From Bremia lactucae (lineage: Eukaryota > Oomycota > Peronosporomycetes > Peronosporales > Peronosporaceae), in contig NC_090627.1 in assembly GCF_004359215.1 (NCBI RefSeq), positions 828,550-892,549 on the forward strand: 64,000 nt of DNA, read 5' to 3'. Position numbers and translations under genes: made by a program. The stretch's first letter is position 1. Every line of letters begins with the position of its first letter. Of the stretch, positions 13,478-41,007 are shown piece by piece. The notes under the pieces were generated by a model. The model was not told the DNA's origin, did no database searches, and worked only from the letters and a program-made list of their open reading frames with translations.

Positions 13478-13482
13478 TGTAA
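13478..13482 (+). repeat. 5-bp target-site duplication (left) of the family-2 element
   Basis: TGTAA here and TGTAA at 23019-23023 flank the family-2 element. Joined across the insertion they restore the start of a type-B LTR. Confidence 0.75.
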
Positions 13483-14036
13483 TGTAACGGGTTAAAGTTG
13501 CCTTAAAGTTACTCAGTCCCCGTTAAGTACACTTGGTGTGCTTAAGGGGATGGTCAATTATAAAATAATAGTAATTAGACCCAGCACTCGGGTGTGATGC
13601 ACATTTGTGACCAACCCTTGTGTATGTGATGCAATTGGATGCATTCACATTAGGAGGGATGACGCCCAGCGTCATCCGTGATGATGGCTAGCGTCATCCG
13701 TTACGCGAGGTATCTAGAAAGATACGCTCGCAATACATATTCAGTGTTATCTATAGAGATGACATTTTATTGGTAAAAATACGTATTTATTTTTCATGCG
13801 CATTAATATAAATCAGTCTGAAAACTACTTCCTAGTTGGTAAGTGCGCACGAGGAGCCGGATTACCGCTCCCGTGACGATACTTAACCAGAGTTCTTAGT
13901 GTGTTGGGTGAGGTCGCTAAAGCGCCCACCACAACTACCTCACTGCGCGCAAGAGAAGCAGGTTAAATCGCTTCCTCGCTGTGCTAGGGTGTGTGTCTAA
14001 GTAGAGCGTGGCCGCATTACGACGTGCCCGCCTACT
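13483..14036 (+). repeat. 5' LTR of family-2 element (554 bp)
   Basis: It starts TGTAACGGGTTAAAGTTGCC and ends CCTACT, three bases before the primer binding site. Other copies are at 22466-23018, 25019-25571 (minus) and 40467-40995. The other two well-bounded copies end CCTACA, so both LTRs of this copy share an altered last base. Confidence 0.85.
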
Positions 14037-14039
14037 GCT

Positions 14040-14051
14040 TGGTAGCTCTTG
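14040..14051 (+). promoter_or_regulatory. tRNA primer binding site
   Basis: TGGTAGCTCTTG follows the LTR. The minus-strand family-2 copy at 25006-25016 has TGGTAGCACTT, so the T in GCTC is probably a later change. Confidence 0.65.
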
Positions 14052-14978
14052 AATTCCTTCCCACGACACACATTTTTGCCTGTGTACGTGTGGGTGAACC
14101 TCAACATCGATTGGTCTCATTTCTCCCACCCTTCCGAACATCATCGGGAGGTGGCAGGGCTTATGGCACGGGGACTTGGTGAACAAGCCCTGGCCAGGCT
14201 CCTGGGTAGTCCTCCTGAGCAACATTTTGCTCAGTTGGAGCAGTTTGAGGCGTTCGTGCTCGGACGCGAATAGCCGCGTCCGAGGCACAGAGCCATGCTG
14301 CGTCGGAGTCCGTCACTCAGACTCAGGATGAGCTGAGGCATGAGTAGGCTCGGAGCGAGGCTCTCAACAGGACTGTTGAGATGCTCTCTGCCCGGCCGCA
14401 TCAGCCGAGGCCAATTCGGATGAACTGCGGCGCACACGATTGTCCACTGGCTTTTAGCCGTGAAGCACTGCGGTGTCGCGCGGCTTATCGAGGACGACAG
14501 CCGGATGGTGTCGTACACCATGTCGCATCTGCGCAATAAGGCCTCAGAGTGGGCTTACTCGCCACTAATGGCCGACAGAAAGGCGTTCATTTGGATTATA
14601 TCCAAGATGGGTAAACACTAAGGGCGATATTTAAGGAAAAAGATTCACACCATGTACCAGCCGCCGAACAACGAAGTGTTGCTTCAGGCGCGCTTCTTTG
14701 GAGCGCGACAGGCGAAGCGATCTCTGCAAGAGTATGTGCAAGAGATGCACTCGCTGTTGGCGTCCATAACCGTAGGTCCGATTCCGGAGCACAATAAGGT
14801 GCCAACGTTTATGAACGGACTACGGTATGGCCCATCGCGACAGGCCCTTTTCAGAAAGGTGCCTTCGACGATGGAAGAGGCAATCCAAATTGCCTTAGTT
14901 GAGGAGCAATCCTACAAGAGTGCCTCGGCGAGATCTGCATCGACCACTGAGGGGTCGGGAAATGCAAGAGCGCAGTAG
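14049..14978 (+). pseudogene. Family-2 gag, first copy
   Basis: The N-terminal piece (14049-14273) contains HREVAGLMARGLGEQALARL. After stops the frame resumes at 14652-14978 with ARQAKRSLQEYVQEMHSLL and FRKVPSTMEEAIQIALVEEQ, the capsid-like retrotransposon gag domain. No zinc knuckle follows, although the minus-strand relative at 8000-8140 has a damaged one. An identical reading is found 1937 bp further on. Confidence 0.8.
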
Positions 14979-15124
14979 GGATGAGATGCCCTACTGACGC
15001 AGACTCTGCAGCTACCCCTAAGTTCAGAGTTGTGGAACAAACGGTTAGCATAGTCCCTGAGGTCTCGAAATTTCGGACTTCAACCCTGCTGGTCTATAGC
15101 GCTCAAATACGAGGCTATAAATAG

Positions 15125-15740
15125 GTGATGACCCTTCTAGTGGATTCGGGAGCATCACAAAATTTTGTGAAACTCGCGGCTTTAAGAAAGAGACCGGCGA
15201 TGTTTGAGTCGCTTTGCCAGGATAGCAAGCGAGAAAAGGTTCACTGTTCGTTTAGCGAACGGCACGCTCGTTAAGTCTGAGGGAGTTCAGGTAGAACTCG
15301 CCTTCAGATTTAGTGACTTCTCTTGTAAAGAGAAGTTCACAGTGCTAGGAATGGAGAGTCCGTATGACCTCATCCTAGGCATGCCATGGTTGGCAAAGTA
15401 CCAACCATGGATAGACTGGCGTACACGCACAGTTGCGAACTCTACGCAGGACACCGGAAAGGATGTGCTCCTGCGAGAGGCCTATGCAACTGATGTCGTG
15501 TCGAACACAGTTGAGGGTGCGTTGACGGGATGTCAAACGTCACCAATTCCTACCCAGCTCGTGGAGACTGAGGTAGTGAATAGGACGATGACAAGTAGTC
15601 ATGCGTCCGAATGTCCTGCACAGAGCCGAGAGCCTGTGGCAGTAGACGGCGAGCTGACAAGAAGTCATGCGTCGCATAAACCGGCACAGTGCCAAGAGCC
15701 TGGTGCGGTTGGAAGGGGTGCGTTAGCCAGGAGTGCAACG
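15125..15740 (+). pseudogene. Family-2 aspartic protease, first copy
   Basis: MTLLVDSGASQNFVKLAAL at 15128 carries the DSG catalytic triad of retropepsins. A frame shift near 15200 moves to the frame 15204-15740, which reads SEKRFTVRLANGTLVKSE and YDLILGMPWLAKYQPWIDW, the second half of the protease. The tail is S/A/Q-rich. It runs into the n at 15741. Confidence 0.8.
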
Positions 15741-15741: not shown

Positions 15742-17677
15742 AATATAAATCAGTCTGAAAACTACTTCCTAGTTGGTAAGTGCGCACGAGGAGCCGGATT
15801 ACCGCTCCCGTGACGATACTTAACCAGAGTTCTTAGTGTGTTGGGTGAGGTCGCTAAAGCGCCCACCACAACTACCTCACTGCGCGCAAGAGAAGCAGGT
15901 TAAATCGCTTCCTCGCTGTGCTAGGGTGTGTGTCTAAGTAGAGCGTGGCCGCATTACGACGTGCCCGCCTACTGCTTGGTAGCTCTTGAATTCCTTCCCA
16001 CGACACACATTTTTGCCTGTGTACGTGTGGGTGAACCTCAACATCGATTGGTCTCATTTCTCCCACCCTTCCGAACATCATCGGGAGGTGGCAGGGCTTA
16101 TGGCACGGGGACTTGGTGAACAAGCCCTGGCCAGGCTCCTGGGTAGTCCTCCTGAGCAACATTTTGCTCAGTTGGAGCAGTTTGAGGCGTTCGTGCTCGG
16201 ACGCGAATAGCCGCGTCCGAGGCACAGAGCCATGCTGCGTCGGAGTCCGTCACTCAGACTCAGGATGAGCTGAGGCATGAGTAGGCTCGGAGCGAGGCTC
16301 TCAACAGGACTGTTGAGATGCTCTCTGCCCGGCCGCATCAGCCGAGGCCAATTCGGATGAACTGCGGCGCACACGATTGTCCACTGGCTTTTAGCCGTGA
16401 AGCACTGCGGTGTCGCGCGGCTTATCGAGGACGACAGCCGGATGGTGTCGTACACCATGTCGCATCTGCGCAATAAGGCCTCAGAGTGGGCTTACTCGCC
16501 ACTAATGGCCGACAGAAAGGCGTTCATTTGGATTATATCCAAGATGGGTAAACACTAAGGGCGATATTTAAGGAAAAAGATTCACACCATGTACCAGCCG
16601 CCGAACAACGAAGTGTTGCTTCAGGCGCGCTTCTTTGGAGCGCGACAGGCGAAGCGATCTCTGCAAGAGTATGTGCAAGAGATGCACTCGCTGTTGGCGT
16701 CCATAACCGTAGGTCCGATTCCGGAGCACAATAAGGTGCCAACGTTTATGAACGGACTACGGTATGGCCCATCGCGACAGGCCCTTTTCAGAAAGGTGCC
16801 TTCGACGATGGAAGAGGCAATCCAAATTGCCTTAGTTGAGGAGCAATCCTACAAGAGTGCCTCGGCGAGATCTGCATCGACCACTGAGGGGTCGGGAAAT
16901 GCAAGAGCGCAGTAGGGATGAGATGCCCTACTGACGCAGACTCTGCAGCTACCCCTAAGTTCAGAGTTGTGGAACAAACGGTTAGCATAGTCCCTGAGGT
17001 CTCGAAATTTCGGACTTCAACCCTGCTGGTCTATAGCGCTCAAGTACGAGGCTATAAATAGGTGATGACCCTTCTAGTGGATTCGGGAGCATCACAAAAT
17101 TTTGTGAAACTCGCGGCTTTAAGAAAGAGACCGGCGATGTTTGAGTCGCTTTGCCAGGATAGCAAGCGAGAAAAGGTTCACTGTTCGTTTAGCGAACGGC
17201 ACGCTCGTTAAGTCTGAGGGAGTTCAGGTAGAACTCGCCTTCAGATTTAGTGACTTCTCTTGTAAAGAGAAGTTCACAGTGCTAGGAATGGAGAGTCCGT
17301 ATGACCTCATCCTAGGCATGCCATGGTTGGCAAAGTACCAACCATGGATAGACTGGCGTACACGCACAGTTGCGAATTCTACGCAAGACACCGGAAAGGA
17401 TGTGCTCCTGCGAGAGGCGTATGCAACTGATGTCGTGTCAAATACAGTTGAGGGTGCGGTGACGGGATGTTAAACGTAACCAACTCCTACCCAGCTCGTG
17501 GATACTGAGGTAGTGAAAAGGACGATGACAGGTAGTCATGCGTCTGAATCTCCTGCACAGAGCCGAGAGCCTGTGGCAGTAGACGGCGAGCTGACATGTA
17601 ATCATGCGTCGCATAAACCGGCACAGTGTCTAGAGCCTGGTGCGGCTGGAAGGAGTGCGTTAGCCAGGAGTGCAACG
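15742..17677 (+). repeat. 1.94-kb duplicated segment, copy 2 (after the n)
   Basis: It contains a 3' LTR fragment, primer binding site, gag (15986-16915) and protease (17065-17473) just like copy 1. Copy 2 has an extra stop at 17471-17473 in the protease tail. Confidence 0.9.
15986..16915 (+). pseudogene. Family-2 gag, second copy
   Basis: It gives the same reading frames and stops as 14049-14978 (16589-16915 repeats the YVQEMHSLL and MEEAIQIALVEEQ blocks). It is kept as a separate entry because the duplication may be real or an assembly product. Confidence 0.75.
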
Positions 17678-17858: not shown

Positions 17859-20760
17859 GTGCCCCGGCAAGTCTTTAAATCTGCCGAGGAGATAGCAAAT
17901 CTCCCGGAGATGTCATGGGATCTGTTCCTTGCTGAATTAAAGGAAGGAAAGATCCACGAAATAGTCACACCAGTTCCAGAAGATAACTTGGTGGACTGTT
18001 GCTCGTCGTCCACAATGGACGAGAGCGTCCTAAAAATGGACAAAAAGAAGCGGTTCGCTGCTCAAGGCTGGGATGCCTTGAGAGACAGTCCGTTCTTTGA
18101 GGTTCTGTGGAAACATCGCGATGTTTTCCCGGAAGAAGTGCCGAGCCGCCTACCAGTAGATAGGGGCATCGGGCACGAGATAGACCTCGAACCTGCACTA
18201 AGTATTGTGTGACCAGGCAATGGCCATTGCCAAAAGAACAAGTCGATTATATCGATGAGTTCTTTGACAAGCGAGCCAAGGCGGGTTTTGTGTGCGTAAA
18301 GCCACAGGTGGATGGCGCGTGGCTCATGCTTGCGATAAGCTGAACGCGGCGAATTTACCGGCGCAAACGCCAATCCCGCGGAAACATTCTTGTTGAACTC
18401 CATGGGAAAGTCAACTATCTTTTCCGCGTTGGATTTGAAGGATGGCTACGATCAGGTACTCATTAGAAAGTCCGATGTAGCCAAAACGGCAGTAAGCACC
18501 CTAAGCGGCATGCTTTGGGAGTGGCTTGTGATGCTTCAAGGTTTAAAAAAGCACCAGCGACATTCAACCAAGTGGTAGCTCACGTGATGCGTCAGCACCG
18601 TGTCTACGCGCCTCATTACTTTGATGATGTATTTAGGCATAATAGGGCCGAGGCTGGCTGAGCGCAATAGAGTCGCACAAGCGTCATTTAGACGCTGTGG
18701 TGTAGACTTTAAAGGATGCCCAATCGTACGTCAACTTGCAAAAGTGCGTCATAGGTGTCCCTGGGATACCTGTACTGGGCTGCATCGTTGGTACACATGG
18801 TGTACGAGCAGACCCAGACAAGGTAAAATCAGTAAAGGAATGGCCAAGTCCACGGCATGTAAAGGATTTGCGCTAATTCCTAGGGTCGTCTGCGATGCAA
18901 GTAATTTTGCAATCGGCAGCGTGCTCATGCAGAAGGATGACGACGGCGTTGACCGTGTCATCTCTTATCAGTCCCGGCTATTAAAAGCCGCGGAACCGAA
19001 TTACCCTGTGCATGACAAAGAGCTACTTTCAATAAAGAATGCTTTGTCAAGTTTCGTGTGCACTAATTGGGCACCAAGCCATTTGTGGTTTATACGGACC
19101 ACGCATCACTGTGGACCGCAATAAACTCACCGCACCTCTCGCCTAGAATGGCAAGATGGCTCACATTCTTCTCTAAATTCGATTTTAAAGTTGAGTATAA
19201 GCCGGGTAAGTCGAATGGCTTGGCTGACGCTTTATCGCGCAGACCAGACTTCGAGGTTAGACACCAGGAGAGTGTGTCTAGTGCGAAAGCACACCTTTCG
19301 GCCGTCGACGTTGGCAGCCATGAAGGCATACCACGTGACGAGCTCATTGGCCTCTGAAATCAAAGAGAGCCACAGTCAGGACGACCACTGTCGCCTGCTG
19401 TTGGTTCACTTCGGTAGACGAAAGGTTTCCCTTCCGTCGCACGTGAAAGCTAAGCTCAATCGCTTTAGCTACACCGATGGCCTGTTATGGCATCAGCTTT
19501 CACCTTTTGATCCCTTGAGAATCTATGTGCCTCATGACACAGATCTCAAGCTGATGATCCTTCACGAGCTCCATGATGCGCCAGCTAGTGGGCATCTGGG
19601 CCGTGAAAAGACATTCTTACGAGTGTCAGAGGAATTTTGGTGGCCACATCTATATAGATGGGTAGCCAACTATATTCGCTCTTGCTAACAGTGTCAGCGC
19701 ATTGAGCCTGCACAATCCTGCAGTGCGCCACTATAGCCGCTACCAATTCCAACCAGCTGTTGGAAGTCAGCAAGTCTGGACTTCATGTTTAGCATGCCGC
19801 CCGATCATAAGGGTCGGACAGGGCTAGTCGTCTTTGTAGACAGACCGAGCAAGATGGTGCATTTAGCACCATGTAAGACATCGATCACAGGCAAGGAGGC
19901 AGCTCTCTTGTTTCTGGATTATGTTTATCGACTACACGGGATGCCTGAGTCCATAGTATCGGACCAGGATCCACGTTTTACGTCTGGTTTTTGGCGACAT
20001 GTGTTCGAGCTGCTTGGTAGCAAGCTTCACATGTCGACCGCAGATCATCCCTAGACCGATGGCCAAACAGAACGTGTCAATCGGATCGTGGCGGATGTCT
20101 TGCGCACTATAGCAACTTCCAAAGAGTGGAGCAAACAATTGCCTTTTGTGGAGTTCGCTATAAATAACAGTGTCCACGCCAGCACGGGTGAGACACCGTT
20201 TTATATTAACGGACTGCGCCACCCTCGGACGCCAGTCTCGTTTGTGCGCAGCCCGAGTCTTAGTGGGGGAGGACCCTCACTATGCTCGGTGCGAAAGAGG
20301 GACATAGTTTCGTCAATATGACGATGACCCATGAGGGTATCATCTCAAAGACAAAACTTGCCCTAGTGACCCTGCCAGCTTAGCAGTGGTCAATAAAACT
20401 ACGCCTTATGACCGACCTCTTGGCATTATCATAGGCGAGTTCGATGCTAAAAGTGGGAGCGAGGCTTAACGCTTTGTGGATGAGCGATTAGCCATCACAA
20501 GTTAAGTCCGTGACGCAATGGCAAGCGCACAGGACAAGCAAAAAGAATATGCGGATCGAAATGGTTGCAAAAATATGAAACGCTTTTGAGTGGGTTAAAA
20601 AGTACTATTTAGTGCTGCTACCCTACCTAAAAATGGAATTTCTGTACTACCTGGAGGTACAACGAAGTTGTTGCCGCGTTTCATTGGGCCCTTTACGGTG
20701 GTAGAAGAGGTTGGAGACCTAAATTATAGGCTCACCCTTCCCCGTATATGAAGACGCACC
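17859..20760 (+). pseudogene. Family-2 pol: RT, RNase H, integrase
   Basis: 17859-18200 is the protease-RT linker (VFPEEVPSRLPVDRGIGHEI). RT blocks: MGKSTIFSALDLKDGYDQVL (about 18402) and HYFDDVFRHNR (about 18612). Part of RT and the RT-RH connection is deleted near 18860. RNase H: VVCDASNFAIGSVLMQKDDD (about 18890) and VHDKELLSIKNAL. Integrase: the zinc finger (HDAPASGHLGREKTF, about 19570), the core (VVFVDRPSKMVHLAP, SIVSDQDPRFTSGFWR, TDGQTERVNRIV) and EFAINNSVHASTGETPFY, followed by the C-terminal domain at 20385-20760. Stops and shifts throughout. Confidence 0.85.
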
Positions 20761-20825
20761 CCATATTTTACGTGGGAGACTGAAACGGTATGTAGACCCA
20801 AATGAGATCACATACCCCCATCTGG

Positions 20826-22390
20826 CTAAGGAGACCGATGGTGACGCCGACTGTGAGTCGAGCGTCGTTCGGGTGAGGAGGACGGAGAAGGCGAAAAGCT
20901 AACGGACCGATTCCTCCCTCCACGAACAGGACTTGGAGAGCGAAAGACATCACGCGAGTAACGCGGATCCCTCAGCATTATCCGTTCGAAAAGGTCCAAC
21001 CGAGTCTTCAGGCGTTCATAACCCTGACGAGCCTTCGCTGGGACATCAACGAGATCCGAGGTCAGTCGTGAGACTTGACCCTCGAGATCCACAATACGTC
21101 GTTCAGCAGCGCTTAACGCACGTGACTGAACGGACGAAGTTAAGGAGGCCGCGAGTAGGTGGGCGAGATTGCCACTCCTATCGAGCGCCACCTGCACTGA
21201 TGGATGCAGGTGGGAATCAGCGCTTCCTTGTTGGAAGGTTGCTTGCCCACCGCTCCGTTAGGCAAGGGTATCAGATCCTCGTCCATGGAAAGGTTACCCG
21301 AAGAGTTTTGAATCTTGGGAACCGATCGATACCCTACGTGTTGATGTGCCCGGCTTGGTGGCTGCCTATGAAAAGGAGCACCAGCTGAGGCCTCTTCGCT
21401 AGTCTCAAATGGACTAGCAGAAGTAGCCTTGTGAGAAGAAACAGGGGGTACAGTACCGACCATGATTTCTTTCACACGCAAGCAGGCGAAATTAATCCGC
21501 TGCGACCGCTGTTTCATCGCATCGGAATGCAAATGAATGCGGCGCAGGAGTTCCGCCTCGTATTGGTCGGGCGCTTCATTTGAACGCAACACGACCGGGA
21601 TCGGAAAAATACGCCCAAACGATTTTCCCTGAGCCCTCCATGATTGAAAGACGCCATAATAATTATGTGCGTCTACAAGAGCGCGCACTAGGAGCGACGC
21701 TCTTGGCCCGTTTACACGAAGGCATTTAGATGGAGGGGGCATCTTTGGAATGCCACCCGTCACACAGCCACGTTCTAAACGCCTGACTTGTGACACCGAC
21801 TGAGCACGTTCACGTGTCGTCGGCGGAGCTTTAGGCTCCGAATCCTCTATGTTAGAATTAGAACCATTATGGATTATGGTCTGAGCATAAGGCGTTGTGG
21901 TTATACCCAACGGAGAAGCGGCTAAGCCTTAATGAGCAGCGCTCTCATTACCTGACGCTGTGCTTTCCAGCGCAGACGACGAGACAGCATTCGTAAATGC
22001 TGCTGTCTCCATGTTGTGAGCCATGAGAGAATTTTGGATGGGCAACAATGCGCCATCATCCTTCCATAGGAGCTCGTTGTCTGCATCACTACTATGAGGT
22101 TACGGCAACGGTTTCGACTCATTTAAGTCGACAATGAGTGACAAATCAACATCCTCACTGTTAAAGTGGGATGGATCCTTTAACCCTGTTGACGCGACAG
22201 CAGCAGTGGCTGTCGGCGTTCCGACGAAGACATTAGACGCGGCCGGCGAATTAACGCGGCGCGTGCGCTTAGTGTGAGGTTGAGTAGGCGTTTTTGCAGA
22301 TGACCCACCAACGTGGCCCCTTTTAGGTGGCATCTTTGGCGCCGTGTATGGAAACACGTCCGCTAGAGTGATTGAGTGAAGTGGCGGCAC
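20826..22390 (-). pseudogene. Opposite-strand accessory ORF of family-2 Gypsy
   Basis: On the minus strand an N-terminal piece (22100-22390) begins MPPLHSITLADVFPY and has basic stretches (PPKRGH, TKRTRRV), suggesting nuclear import. After frame breaks, 21140-21910 has VNGPRASLLVRALVDAHNYY and APDQYEAELLRRIHLHSDAM. The third piece (20826-21197) has a coiled-coil-like LSAAERRIVDLEGQVSRLTS and an SR-rich tail (RSVSFSPSPSSSPERRS). The pieces add up to about 480 residues. The region to 21390 lies opposite the chromodomain and linker; the rest lies beyond pol. It aligns with 39370-40334. I do not recognise the family. Confidence 0.6.
21190..21395 (+). pseudogene. Family-2 chromodomain
   Basis: GGNQRFLVGRLLAHR, then in shifted frames LVHGKGYPKSFESWEPIDTL and VDVPGLVAAYEKEHQ. 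The SWEP and YEKEH blocks identify a chromodomain. Frame shifts inactivate it. Confidence 0.7.
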
Positions 22391-22465
22391 GTAAAGCTGC
22401 TCGCAGTTCCTCTCGTCTCTCTGACGAAATTAAAAATGTGAATTTGGTCTTAAAGGTGGAGATGT

Positions 22466-23018
22466 TGTAACGAGTTAAAGTTGCCCCAACGTTACACAGT
22501 CCCCGTTAATACACTTGGTGTACTTAAGGGGATGGTCAATTATAAAATAATAGTAATTAGACCCAGCACTCGGGTGTGATGCACATTTGTGACCAACCCT
22601 TGTGTATGTGATGCAATTGGGTGCATTCACATTAGGAGGGATGACGCCCAGCGTCATCCGTGATGATGGCTAGCGTCATCCGTTACGCGAGGTATCTAGA
22701 AAGATACGCTCGCAATACATATTAAGTGATATCTATAGAGATGACATTTTATTGGTAAAAATACGTATTTATTTTTCATGCGAATGAATATAAATCAGTC
22801 TGAAAACTACTTCCTAGTTGGTAAGTGCGCACGAGGAGCCGGATTGCCGCTCCCGTGACGACACTTAACCAGAGTACTTAGTGTGTTGGGTAAGGTCGCT
22901 AAAGCGCCCACCACAACTACCTCACTGCACGCAAGAGAAGCAGGTTAAATCGCTTCTTCGCTGTGCTAGGGTGTGTGTCTAAGGAGAGCGTGGCCGCATT
23001 ACGACGCGTCCACCTACT
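22466..23018 (+). repeat. 3' LTR of family-2 element (553 bp)
   Basis: It starts TGTAACGAGTTAAAGTTGCC after the purine-rich AAAGGTGGAGATG and ends CCACCTACT. It pairs with 13483-14036. Confidence 0.85.
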
Positions 23019-23402
23019 TGTAACGCCATTTATATAAGAGGATTAGCATATCCTCTATGAGGAAATAAATAAAGAAGTACAAAGCTATTATCTCTATTAA
23101 TAATTTGCCTTTATCGTTCCAATATACCAAATTTGGTAATATTGATGCAATAAGACATTAGTTGTATTGATTACTTAAAATTACTTTTAAATCAACCGCG
23201 CCAATCGTCTCAAGACACGATTGTGCAATGCGCAAGTAGGCGCTATACATAGTTTGTTATTAATTTAATAAAGTCAGTAGTAGATAGAAGATCGTTACGT
23301 CGATCCTTAATATAACAGTACAATTTCACTTTTTCCCTTAGAATTAACCCCTGGTAGCTAGGACTTCCTAGCTACTTAAAATATTACTCTCAACGTCATT
23401 TA
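23019..23402 (+). repeat. Type-B LTR, resumed after the family-2 insertion
   Basis: It begins TGTAACGCCATTTATATAAGAGG and carries the type-B landmarks (ACCAAATTTGGTAATATTG, GCGCAAGTAGGCG). The first five bases are the right target-site duplicate. It is the 3' LTR of the element at 8620-13482. Its own end is lost because a type-A LTR begins at 23403. Confidence 0.75.
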
Positions 23403-24951: not shown

Positions 24952-25005
24952 TTGAGGCTCATCCTCACGTACACACGCAGAGATGCGGGTCGTGGGAAGG
25001 ATTTC

Positions 25006-25016
25006 AAGTGCTACCA
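25006..25016 (-). promoter_or_regulatory. tRNA primer binding site (family 2, minus)
   Basis: The minus strand reads TGGTAGCACTT, followed by GAAATCCTTCCC as in the long family-2 copy. Confidence 0.7.
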
Positions 25017-25018
25017 AG

Positions 25019-25571
25019 TGTAGGCGGGCACGTCGTAATGCGGCCACGCTCTACTTAAGCACACACCCTAGCACAGCGAGGAAGCGGTTAAACCTGCTTC
25101 TCTTGCGTGCAGTGAGGTAGTTGTGGTGGGCGCGCAAGCGACCTCACCCAACACACTAAGAACTCTGGTAAAGTGTCGTCACGGGAGCGGTAATCCGTCT
25201 CCTCGTGCGCACTTACCAAGTAGGTAGTAATTTTCAGACTGATTTATATTTAATAGAATTAAATACAAATACCTATTTTTACCAATTAAAATGTTATCTC
25301 TATAGATATCATTTAATATGTATCACGAGCGTATCTTTATAGATACCTCGCGTAACTGATGACGCTAGCCGTCATCATGGATGACGCTTGGTGTCATCCC
25401 TCCTAATGTGAATGCACCCATGTGCATCGCATCCACAAGGATTCGTCACAAATGTGCACCACACCCGAGTGTTGGGTCTAATTACTATTATTTAGTAATT
25501 GACCATCCCCTTAAGTACCAAATGTACTTAATGGGGACTGTGCAACATTAGGGCAACCCTAGCCCGTTACA
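25019..25571 (-). repeat. Family-2 5' LTR, minus strand (553 bp)
   Basis: The reverse complement starts TGTAACGGGCTAGGGTTGCC at 25571 and ends CCTACA at 25019. Only 68 bases of its internal region (24952-25018, with the primer binding site) remain before the n. Confidence 0.85.
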
Positions 25572-39369: not shown

Positions 39370-40334
39370 TCAGATGAGGGAGACGGTGAATTTACTTGGT
39401 GACTGCCTATGAAAAGGAGCACCAGCTGAGGCCTCTTCGCTAGTCTCAAATGGACTAGCAGAAGTAGCGTAGTGAGAAGAAACAGGGGGTACAGTACCGC
39501 CCATGATTTCTTTCACACGCAAGCGGGCGATATTAATTCGCTGCGACCGCTGTATCATCGCATCGGAATGCGGATGAATGCGGCGCAAGAATTTCGCCTC
39601 GTATTGGTCGGGCGTTTCATTTAAACGCAACACGACCGGGTCTTCCATAATTTAATGACACCATAATAGTTTTGAGCATTTAGAAAAGCGCGTTTTTTGA
39701 GCGACGCTATTGTCCCGTTTACACGAGGCCATTCAGAGAGAGGGAGCATAAGTGATATGCCACCCGTCACACAGCCACGTTTAATACGGCTGGCTTGTGA
39801 CAGCGACTAAGCACATTCACGCGTCGTCGGCGGAGCGTTACGCTCAGAATCCTCTATGTCAGAACCATTATGGATAATGGTCTGAGCAAAAGACGGTGTG
39901 GTTTTACCCAACGGAGAAGCGGCTGCGCCTTTATGGGCAGCGCTCGCAATAACCGTCGCTGCGCTATCCAGCGCAGACGACGAGACAGCATTCGTAAGTG
40001 TTGCTGTCTCCATGTTATGAGCAATGATAGAAGTTTGGATGGGCAATAATGTGCCATCATCCTTCCTCGTGAGATCCTTGTCCGCATCATTACTTTGAGG
40101 TGACGGCAACGGTCTCGACTCATTGTAGTCGACAATGAGCGACGGATCAACATCCTCACTGATTAAGTGGGATGAATCCTTAAGCCCCGTTAACGCGACA
40201 GCAGCAGTAGCGGTCGGCGTTTCAGCTAAGGCATTGGACGCTGCAGGGCGTGTTAACGCGGCGCGCGCGCTAAATGCAAGAGTTAGTGGGCGTCTTCGCA
40301 GACGACCCTCCAACGTTGCCCATGTAGGTGGCAC
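39370..40334 (-). pseudogene. Opposite-strand accessory ORF, second family-2 copy
   Basis: 39807-40334 is a 175-codon minus frame with LAETPTATAAVALTGLKDSS, SEDVDPSLIVDYNESRPLPS and AQTIIHNGSDIEDSERNAPP. After a stop the LERGCVTGG-like and VNG...NAQNYYGV parts follow. 39370-39648 reads LNETPDQYEAKFLRRIHPHS and ASPFETSEEASAGAPFHRQ. The order matches 20826-22390 with many amino-acid differences but the same frame, which is open here across a part that is broken there. Confidence 0.6.
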
Positions 40335-40466
40335 CTTTGGCGCCGTGTATGAAAACAGAGGTCGCTAGAGTGAATCAGAGACTTAGCGGCGCGTCAAGCA
40401 GCATAGTTCTTCCTTCCACTTTATCGAAGTTTAAAATGTAACTTCGTTCTTTAAGGGAGTGGATAG

Positions 40467-40995
40467 TGTAACTGGCTAAAGTTGCCCTAATGTTACACAG
40501 TCCCCGTTAAATACACTTGGTGTACTCAAGGGGATGGTCAATTTCTTAAATAAAGTAATTAGACCCACCACTTGAGTGTGGTTCACATTTGTGACCAACC
40601 CTTGTGTATGTGATGCACATAGGTGCATTCACATTAGGAGGGATGTCGCCTAGCGTCATCCGTTACGCGAGATATATAGAGATACGCTCGCAAAACATAT
40701 TAGTGTAATCAATAGAGATGACAGTTCAATTTGGTAAAAATTGGAATTTATATTTAATGCGATTATATTTAAATCGGTCTCAAACTACTTTCTACTTATC
40801 AAGTGCGCACGAGGAGTCGAATCACCGCTCCCGTGACGACACGTTTACCAGAGTACCTAGTGCGTTGGATGAGGTCGCTAAGGCGCCCACCACAATTACC
40901 TCACGGCACACGAAATTAGACGGTCAAACAGCTTCTCCGCTGCGCTAGGGTGTGTGCTTAAGTAGAGCGTGCCCCCATAAAGACTTGCCCACCTA
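40467..40995 (+). repeat. Family-2 3' LTR (529 bp)
   Basis: It starts TGTAACTGGCTAAAGTTGCC and ends CCACCTACA. Relative to 22466-23018 it lacks a few short blocks, such as the middle of the GATGACGCC repeat. Confidence 0.85.
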
Positions 40996-41007
40996 CAACT
41001 TTCAACT

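What the first reader, a model, noticed from the sequence alone, without database searches (positions are those of the whole stretch)
20826..22390. Family-2 Gypsy carries a second gene-like frame on the strand opposite pol, shared with an independent copy
Minus-strand frames at 20826-22390 and 39370-40334 align over most of their length with the same frame but many amino-acid differences (for example LRSNEAPDQYEAELLRRIHL against LRLNETPDQYEAKFLRRIHP). The N-terminal two thirds lie beyond the chromodomain, so they are not a shadow of pol. The predicted protein has basic NLS-like stretches, a unique middle domain, a coiled-coil-like part and an SR-rich tail. Opposite-strand extra ORFs are known in some plant LTR elements; I know of none described for oomycete chromoviruses. 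A regulator of the element or of host silencing is a possible role (inference).
Basis: partly seen in the sequence, partly recalled or inferred. Interest (0 to 1): 0.9.

Follow-up and report, generated by a model that had tools for sequence, protein, structure and literature searches.

The report
Antisense accessory gene in oomycete retrotransposon
A jumping gene of a downy mildew carries a real extra protein gene on its reverse strand, next to its end repeat, and relatives of that gene are found intact in other downy mildews; its job is unknown but it looks like a nuclear regulator.

Summary
The minus frame is a real gene, though both window copies are broken. Of 81 copies from this genome (79 loci plus the two window copies), one (L025) keeps a single 493-codon frame. 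Profile searches found five more full-length proteins (480-559 aa; one from Peronospora effusa), 45-74% identical to each other and to L025. Flank matches put relatives in P. farinosa and in unnamed sources at the same place, between pol and the 3' LTR. Variants carried by 8 or more copies are depleted for amino-acid changes most strongly in this frame, also where it overlaps pol's tail; the signal is moderate and depends on the cut-off. This is an antisense accessory gene of the kind called aORF-3R in plants and brtn in Botrytis. No Pfam family fits, and listings of six searches showed no oomycete case. Pol here ends in an SH3-type domain without detectable chromodomain, so 'chromovirus' is not supported. 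My best reading is a nuclear regulator made from a transcript begun near the 3' LTR; expression, localisation and mechanism are inferred.

The parts
13478..13482 (.). candidate 5' target-site duplication TGTAA (same letters at 23019-23023; they also begin the LTR, so this is not certain)
   Evidence: read directly
13483..14036 (+). 5' LTR of the family-2 element (about 554 bp; 95.6% identical to the 3' LTR)
   Evidence: self-comparison; borders
14622..14978 (+). gag fragment (Retrotrans_gag)
   Evidence: E 9.9e-9
18588..20054 (+). broken pol: RNase H (18588-19121), integrase zinc-binding (19125-19685), integrase core (19737-20051)
20267..21112 (+). 3' end of pol, aligned to the open pol end of L025; in L025 its last 284 bp overlap the minus gene tail to tail
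   Evidence: last domain in L025 SH3_Tf2-1
20827..22333 (-). antisense accessory gene, degenerate copy (MPPKRG start at 22333): two in-frame stops and one frameshift
22103..22333 (-). N-terminal part: basic NLS-like start and the conserved stretch of residues 51-75
   Evidence: mean pairwise identity 0.71 (residues 1-25) and 0.68 (51-75)
21143..21928 (-). middle part with the conserved helical core
   Evidence: (profile E 2.8e-112)
20829..21257 (-). coiled coil and SR-rich tail, in another frame after the frameshift
   Evidence: (profile E 7.1e-64)
22365..22371 (-). oomycete initiator-like site (YCAYTYY) 38 nt before the minus start codon
   Evidence: motif definition from PMC3599244 (passages); weak
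22450..22465 (+). polypurine-tract-like stretch before the 3' LTR
   Evidence: read directly
22466..23018 (+). 3' LTR; 132 bp lie between it and the minus start codon; likely place of an antisense promoter (inferred)
23019..23023 (.). candidate 3' target-site duplication TGTAA
39330..40333 (-). second, independent degenerate copy of the minus gene (C-terminal third mostly deleted, frameshift near 39637)
40464..40996 (+). LTR beside the second copy

Best explanation
The frame is a genuine accessory gene of a Ty3/Gypsy LTR retrotransposon family in a downy mildew (probably Bremia lactucae). It lies on the strand opposite gag-pol, between pol and the 3' LTR, tail to tail with pol. It codes for a protein of about 480-490 residues: a basic NLS-like start, a disordered stretch, a conserved helical core, a long coiled coil and an SR-rich tail. 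Likely mechanism (inferred): an antisense transcript begins in or just inside the 3' LTR. Its protein enters the nucleus and self-associates through the coiled coil. Its SR/basic ends then act on RNA or chromatin to tune the element's own expression, as HBZ does for HTLV-1 and as is proposed for Grande GENE23. Shown: the gene, its position, and its constraint. Inferred: transcription, nuclear site, binding and effect. My odds: real protein-coding gene 0.95; nuclear regulator of the element about 0.45.
For: Intact frame: L025 has 493 open codons. It is the only one of 81 sequences with the minus frame open over 95% or more, and the only one of 71 with a pol match that keeps the pol end open. 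Conservation: full-length relatives P0010 (559 aa), P0011 (480), P0012 (488), P0013 (481, P. effusa) and P0015 (480). The 15 pairs among these five and L025 are 45-74% identical; 6.5-13.5 stops would be expected per pair if neutral, with none in the proteins (nonsense to missense among private changes 45 to 848). Position: a read-through tail of the P. farinosa protein P0017 matches the antisense of pol's end here (65%, E 5e-21 to 1e-20). The N-terminal extension of P0010 matches the antisense of the polypurine tract and LTR start (69%, E 2e-10), and P0033 matches the same stretch (52%, E 3e-13). Selection: for variants in 8 or more of 81 sequences, the ratio of replacing to silent, relative to private variants, is 0.39 (p 5e-5) in this frame, the lowest of six. 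In the pol overlap it is 0.22 (p 0.002, 20 variants), while pol's own frame there gives 1.72 (n.s.). The pol integrase control gives 0.11 (p 4e-4, 12 variants). Indels in 8 or more copies: 3 of 3 are multiples of three in the gene, 0 of 13 in LTR/leader. Shape: coiled coil at pLDDT 93-95, low confidence over most of the rest.
Against: No transcript, protein or localisation data were available. The selection signal is weaker than in pol and depends on the cut-off: at 4 or more carriers this frame gives 0.61 but others also fall (0.63-0.86); at 15 or more it ties with the opposite frame that shares third positions (0.51 each). Without CpG transitions it is 0.55 (p 0.05) at 8 or more, 0.81 (n.s.) at 15 or more, and not the lowest at 4 or more. 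The overlap shows nothing at 4 or more (0.83). The strict one-branch version is not significant (0.57, p 0.15) and misses pol as well (1.41). At 5 or more carriers only 3 of 11 indels in the gene are multiples of three, and at 2-4 carriers 1 of 52. Pairwise dN/dS among copies is only about 0.7. Six places identical over 2001 bp carry a broken frame, so the gene may be supplied in trans or be dispensable, or these are assembly duplicates. Databases list proteins because they are open, which favours intact ones. The core gives no confident fold and no structural match.
Confidence: 0.6

Rival explanations
1. A second particle protein: the coiled coil and SR/basic tail make it a nucleoprotein that packages or chaperones the element's RNA, as the tail of a nucleocapsid does, rather than a regulator.
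For: Coiled coil plus SR/basic tail would suit RNA packaging; in L025 the frame and the pol end are both open.
Against: The element has its own gag. No capsid-type Pfam match at E<=1 among 31 relatives and five more. The antisense strand is an odd place for a structural gene needed in large amounts (inference).
Confidence: 0.15
2. A suppressor of host silencing or of another host defence, acting in trans for all copies.
For: Antisense transcription would feed double-stranded RNA to silencing, which a suppressor could counter; Phytophthora infestans has small RNAs of both senses from its abundant elements (PMC3522703, passages). Fast-changing stretch at residues 76-150.
Against: No Pfam match to a known suppressor was listed; an RXLR effector match in 2 of 31 members is at chance level (best E 0.1); no functional data.
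Confidence: 0.12
3. A host or foreign gene picked up by the element and carried as cargo, without a role in its life cycle.
For: Relatives are annotated as ordinary unnamed genes in Peronospora.
Against: The pol-side flank is shared with P. farinosa and the LTR-side flank with P0010 and P0033, so the gene has stayed in one place in the element. The surroundings of the other relatives were not shown, so element-free ones are not excluded.
Confidence: 0.08
4. Only the antisense RNA matters (double-stranded RNA with pol RNA); the frame is incidental.
For: Antisense RNAs of retroviruses can act without coding (PMC10186651, abstract).
Against: Frame-related constraint and intact frames at 45-74% identity.
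Confidence: 0.03
5. Chance frame or shadow of pol.
For: Both window copies are broken.
Against: Length far beyond shuffles, full-length relatives in other species, and in the overlap constraint on this frame but not on pol's at 8 or more carriers.
Confidence: 0.02

Closest known systems
Antisense accessory ORFs of plant Ty3/Gypsy elements (aORF-3R: Grande GENE23, RIRE2, Retand ORF4/TRP28, PvRetro13)
   [quoted passage not shown] many copies; GENE23 is reported as nuclear with its own promoter (PMC7264820, parts 1 and 2 of 3 read; PMC11963269, abstract and discussion read).
   Different: No match to TRP28 (PF04195) among Pfam hits at E<=1 in 31 relatives and five more; host is a stramenopile; this gene runs into the end of pol, where its frame rather than pol's shows constraint at 8 or more carriers.
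brtn of Boty / BcGypsy1 in Botrytis cinerea
   Same: Extra antisense gene in a Gypsy-type element of a plant pathogen (title of Zhao et al. 2011 in the reference list, and passages of PMC8365987).
   Different: Fungus, not oomycete; its protein was not at hand, so no sequence comparison was made.
HTLV-1 HBZ
   Same: Antisense gene driven from the 3' LTR with a role in the life cycle (PMC10186651, abstract); that HBZ is a nuclear leucine-zipper protein is recalled.
   Different: No sequence relation tested or claimed; no basic region directly before the coiled coil was seen here; the promoter here is inferred only.
Chronos and Archon, oomycete Gypsy elements with an extra RNase H
   Same: Oomycete Ty3/Gypsy elements that gained an extra function (PMC5348765, passages).
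   Different: Their extra domain is part of the sense-strand polyprotein; Chronos has a chromodomain, which was not found here. The word 'antisense' does not occur in the main text of that paper.

Membership tests
aORF-3R (antisense accessory ORF between pol and 3' LTR) | Long open frame antisense to gag-pol, between pol and the 3' LTR | tested here: met
   132 bp between start codon and 3' LTR in the window copy, 493 codons in L025, 284-bp overlap with pol's tail in L025
aORF-3R (antisense accessory ORF between pol and 3' LTR) | Present in many copies of the family, kept like other element proteins | tested here: met
   146 and 119 matches (lower bounds); constraint, weaker than in pol and dependent on the cut-off
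aORF-3R (antisense accessory ORF between pol and 3' LTR) | Antisense transcript | not testable with these tools
   no RNA data held; only an initiator-like site at -40 to -36 (50 exact sites among 65 copies), weak because the copies are related
Retand ORF4 / TRP28 | Transposase_28 domain PF04195 | tested here: not met
   not among Pfam matches at E<=1 in 31 relatives and five more; whole-genome search with the model found nothing, but its control found nothing either
Chromovirus | Chromodomain at the end of pol | tested here: not met
   L025 pol end, 421 aa, Pfam E<=1: only SH3_Tf2-1 and Integrase_p58_C; the model works on this genome (150 scored of 4669 candidates)
Chromovirus | Reverse transcriptase in the chromovirus branch | not tested
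   no tree of reverse transcriptases was made
HBZ-like antisense bZIP regulator | Basic region next to a leucine zipper | tested here: inconclusive
   coiled coil at residues 391-446; no basic region seen directly before it, no bZIP entry among Pfam matches

The most novel reading that the evidence does not exclude
Stramenopile LTR retrotransposons have independently evolved a retrovirus-style antisense regulatory gene: a coiled-coil, SR-tailed nuclear protein, made from the 3' LTR side, that controls splicing, export or silencing of the element's RNA, and whose coding need has overridden pol in the shared tail.
Probability: 0.3. Interest if true: 0.75.

Novelty: new member of a known kind. 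Interest (0 to 1): 0.55.

Why it matters
Antisense accessory genes in LTR retrotransposons are known from plants and a fungus, and what they do is an open question. A separate case in oomycetes, with its own protein family and measurable constraint, suggests that the arrangement arises repeatedly and is useful to the element. Gypsy elements make up 58.6% of the contig sequence of the Bremia lactucae assembly (PMC6570648, passages), and pieces of the gene are listed as 'unnamed protein' in Peronospora gene sets, so gene counts are affected. It offers a defined protein to test for an element-coded regulator.

Tried and rejected
Rejected: chance frame and shadow of pol; chromodomain at the end of pol in L025.

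Literature: searches (0 papers; 2; 109, 20 listed; 1,527, 20 listed; 151, 12 listed; 23, 10 listed) showed no report of an antisense gene in an oomycete LTR element. Only listings were seen, except for the papers cited.

Full report
What is there. The window (G000:C18:828550-892549, a 116-Mb genome in 220 contigs) holds a Gypsy element with LTRs at 13483-14036 and 22466-23018 (95.6% identical), flanked by TGTAA on both sides, a candidate target duplication. Gag, RNase H and integrase pieces lie on the plus strand. The organism is probably Bremia lactucae: that paper reports a 115-Mb assembly with 24 Mb of gaps and Gypsy elements at 58.6% of contig sequence (PMC6570648, passages), but the name is my inference. 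Between the end of pol and the 3' LTR, on the minus strand, a frame runs from 22333 to about 20827. In this copy it is broken by two stops and a frameshift; the second window copy (40333-39330) is more decayed.

Is it a gene? A six-frame search of the genome listed 146 matches (of 4612 first-look candidates, so a lower bound). I held 79 further loci plus the two window copies. One of the 81, L025, has an uninterrupted frame of 493 codons from MPPKRG to RRHHRSP. The same locus is the only one with an open pol end over the same stretch (1 of 71 with a pol match). Ten of 81 keep at least 60% of the frame in one piece without a stop or gap. In 1000 dinucleotide shuffles the longest run in any frame was 315 codons.

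Relatives elsewhere. A single-sequence search found nine proteins, and a profile search 56 of 7995 scored candidates, among them 'unnamed' proteins of Peronospora effusa and P. farinosa. P0011, P0012, P0013 and P0015 are 480-488 aa and P0010 is 559 aa, with the same order of parts. The 15 pairs among these five and L025 are 45-74% identical. Using the ratio of nonsense to missense among private changes in the copies here (45 to 848), 6.5 to 13.5 stops would be expected per pair without selection; the proteins have none. Proteins enter databases because they are open, but a frame of this length is very unlikely to stay open over such divergence by luck. Mean identity is uneven: highest at residues 1-25, 51-75, 226-275 and 376-450, lowest at 76-125.

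Same place in other sources. The P. farinosa protein P0017 runs, after a change of frame, into 60 residues that match the antisense reading of the pol end in this genome (65%, E 5e-21 to 1e-20). The N-terminal extension of P0010 matches the antisense of the polypurine tract and LTR start (69%, E 2e-10); P0033 matches the same stretch (52%, E 3e-13). Each side of the gene is thus shared, though with different sources; no one relative shows both.

Selection by frame. For 81 sequences laid on L025, I compared variants carried by many copies with private ones, in all six frames. At 8 or more carriers the ratio of replacing to silent, relative to private variants, is 0.39 in the minus frame (39 silent, 51 replacing; p 5e-5), the lowest of six; the opposite frame sharing third positions gives 0.48 (p 0.003), the other four 0.96-1.16. 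At 4 or more it is 0.61 (p 0.0009), but four of the other frames also fall to 0.63-0.81. At 15 or more it is 0.51 (p 0.04), equal to the frame sharing third positions. Without CpG transitions it is 0.55 (p 0.05) at 8 or more, 0.69 (p 0.07, not the lowest) at 4 or more and 0.81 (n.s.) at 15 or more. In the overlap with pol the minus frame gives 0.22 (p 0.002; 13 silent, 7 replacing) at 8 or more and 0.09 (p 0.0007) at 15 or more, whereas pol's frame gives 1.72 and 3.04 (n.s.); at 4 or more the minus frame shows nothing (0.83), and without CpG transitions it is 0.31 (p 0.08) at 8 or more. The pol integrase control gives 0.11 (p 4e-4; 9 silent, 3 replacing). Requiring each variant to fit a single branch leaves 35 variants, 0.57, p 0.15, and misses the pol control too (1.41). 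The cut-offs were set without prior justification; all three tried are given, and I take the 8-or-more class as suggestive support, not proof. Indels carried by 8 or more copies are 21, 9 and 3 bp in the gene (3 of 3 multiples of three) against 0 of 13 in LTR and leader; at 5 or more carriers it is 3 of 11 against 0 of 18. Median pairwise dN/dS was 0.69-0.73 outside the overlap, with no matched control.

The protein. Pfam gave only weak matches, mostly coiled-coil families, in 31 members and in five more; no solved relative by sequence. The model (37 sequences, mean pLDDT 54) shows helices at 205-229, 246-257 and 261-281, a confident long helix at 391-446, and low confidence elsewhere. No structural match is worth naming, and the core alone was poorly predicted, so nothing is claimed about its fold. 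The start is basic (KR 23%, no D or E in 35 residues) and the tail is SR-rich (S 25%, KR 24%).

How it may work. In the window copy 132 bp lie between the start codon and the 3' LTR. An exact initiator-like site lies at -40 to -36 (50 sites among 65 copies; motif from PMC3599244, passages). Because the copies share ancestry this counts about once, and an exact match somewhere in 250 nt occurred in 85 of 325 shuffles. An antisense transcript from the LTR side is thus plausible but not shown. A basic start, coiled coil and SR tail suggest a nuclear, self-associating RNA- or chromatin-binding protein. By analogy with GENE23 of Grande (nuclear, own promoter; PMC7264820) and HBZ (PMC10186651, abstract), control of the element's own expression is the likeliest role. 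Packaging and silencing suppression remain open.

A result that could weigh against need. Six places identical over 2001 bp carry a broken frame (seen in L081 and L082). If these moved recently, the gene is not needed in cis. I could not fetch their flanks, so duplication of a larger block or an assembly artefact is not excluded.

Known or new. The arrangement is known as aORF-3R in plants and as brtn in Botrytis. An oomycete case was not seen in the listings of six searches of open papers, which cannot exclude subscription journals, repeat libraries or unlisted papers. I rate it a new member of a known kind, with a protein family of its own. The label chromovirus is not supported by the pol end of L025, while other places in this genome do carry chromodomains. 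No reverse-transcriptase tree was made, so the lineage of the element is left open.

Noticed in passing
window 13805-15740 and 15742-17677: A 1936-bp tandem duplication (98.9% identical) of LTR end and gag region, with one unresolved base at the junction; probably a scaffolding artefact rather than biology (an X shows in the frame there).
   Followed up: partly
G000:C131:912939-914939, C13:883615-885615, C11:2412033-2414033, C4:698300-700300, C1:672509-674509, C1:14305-16305 (L081, L082): Six places share 2001 identical bases of the element with a broken minus frame; recent copies, block duplication or assembly duplicates.
   Followed up: partly
window 24952-25571: An inverted LTR copy of the same family (89% identical) lies about 2 kb downstream of the 3' LTR.
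   Followed up: no
P0013, P0017, P0019, P0021, P0022, P0024, P0032, P0035, P0037, P0040, P0052: Peronospora gene sets list pieces of this retrotransposon gene as ordinary 'unnamed protein product'.
   Followed up: no
G000, 150 scored places: Chromodomains are abundant elsewhere in this genome, so other Gypsy types are probably present.
   Followed up: no
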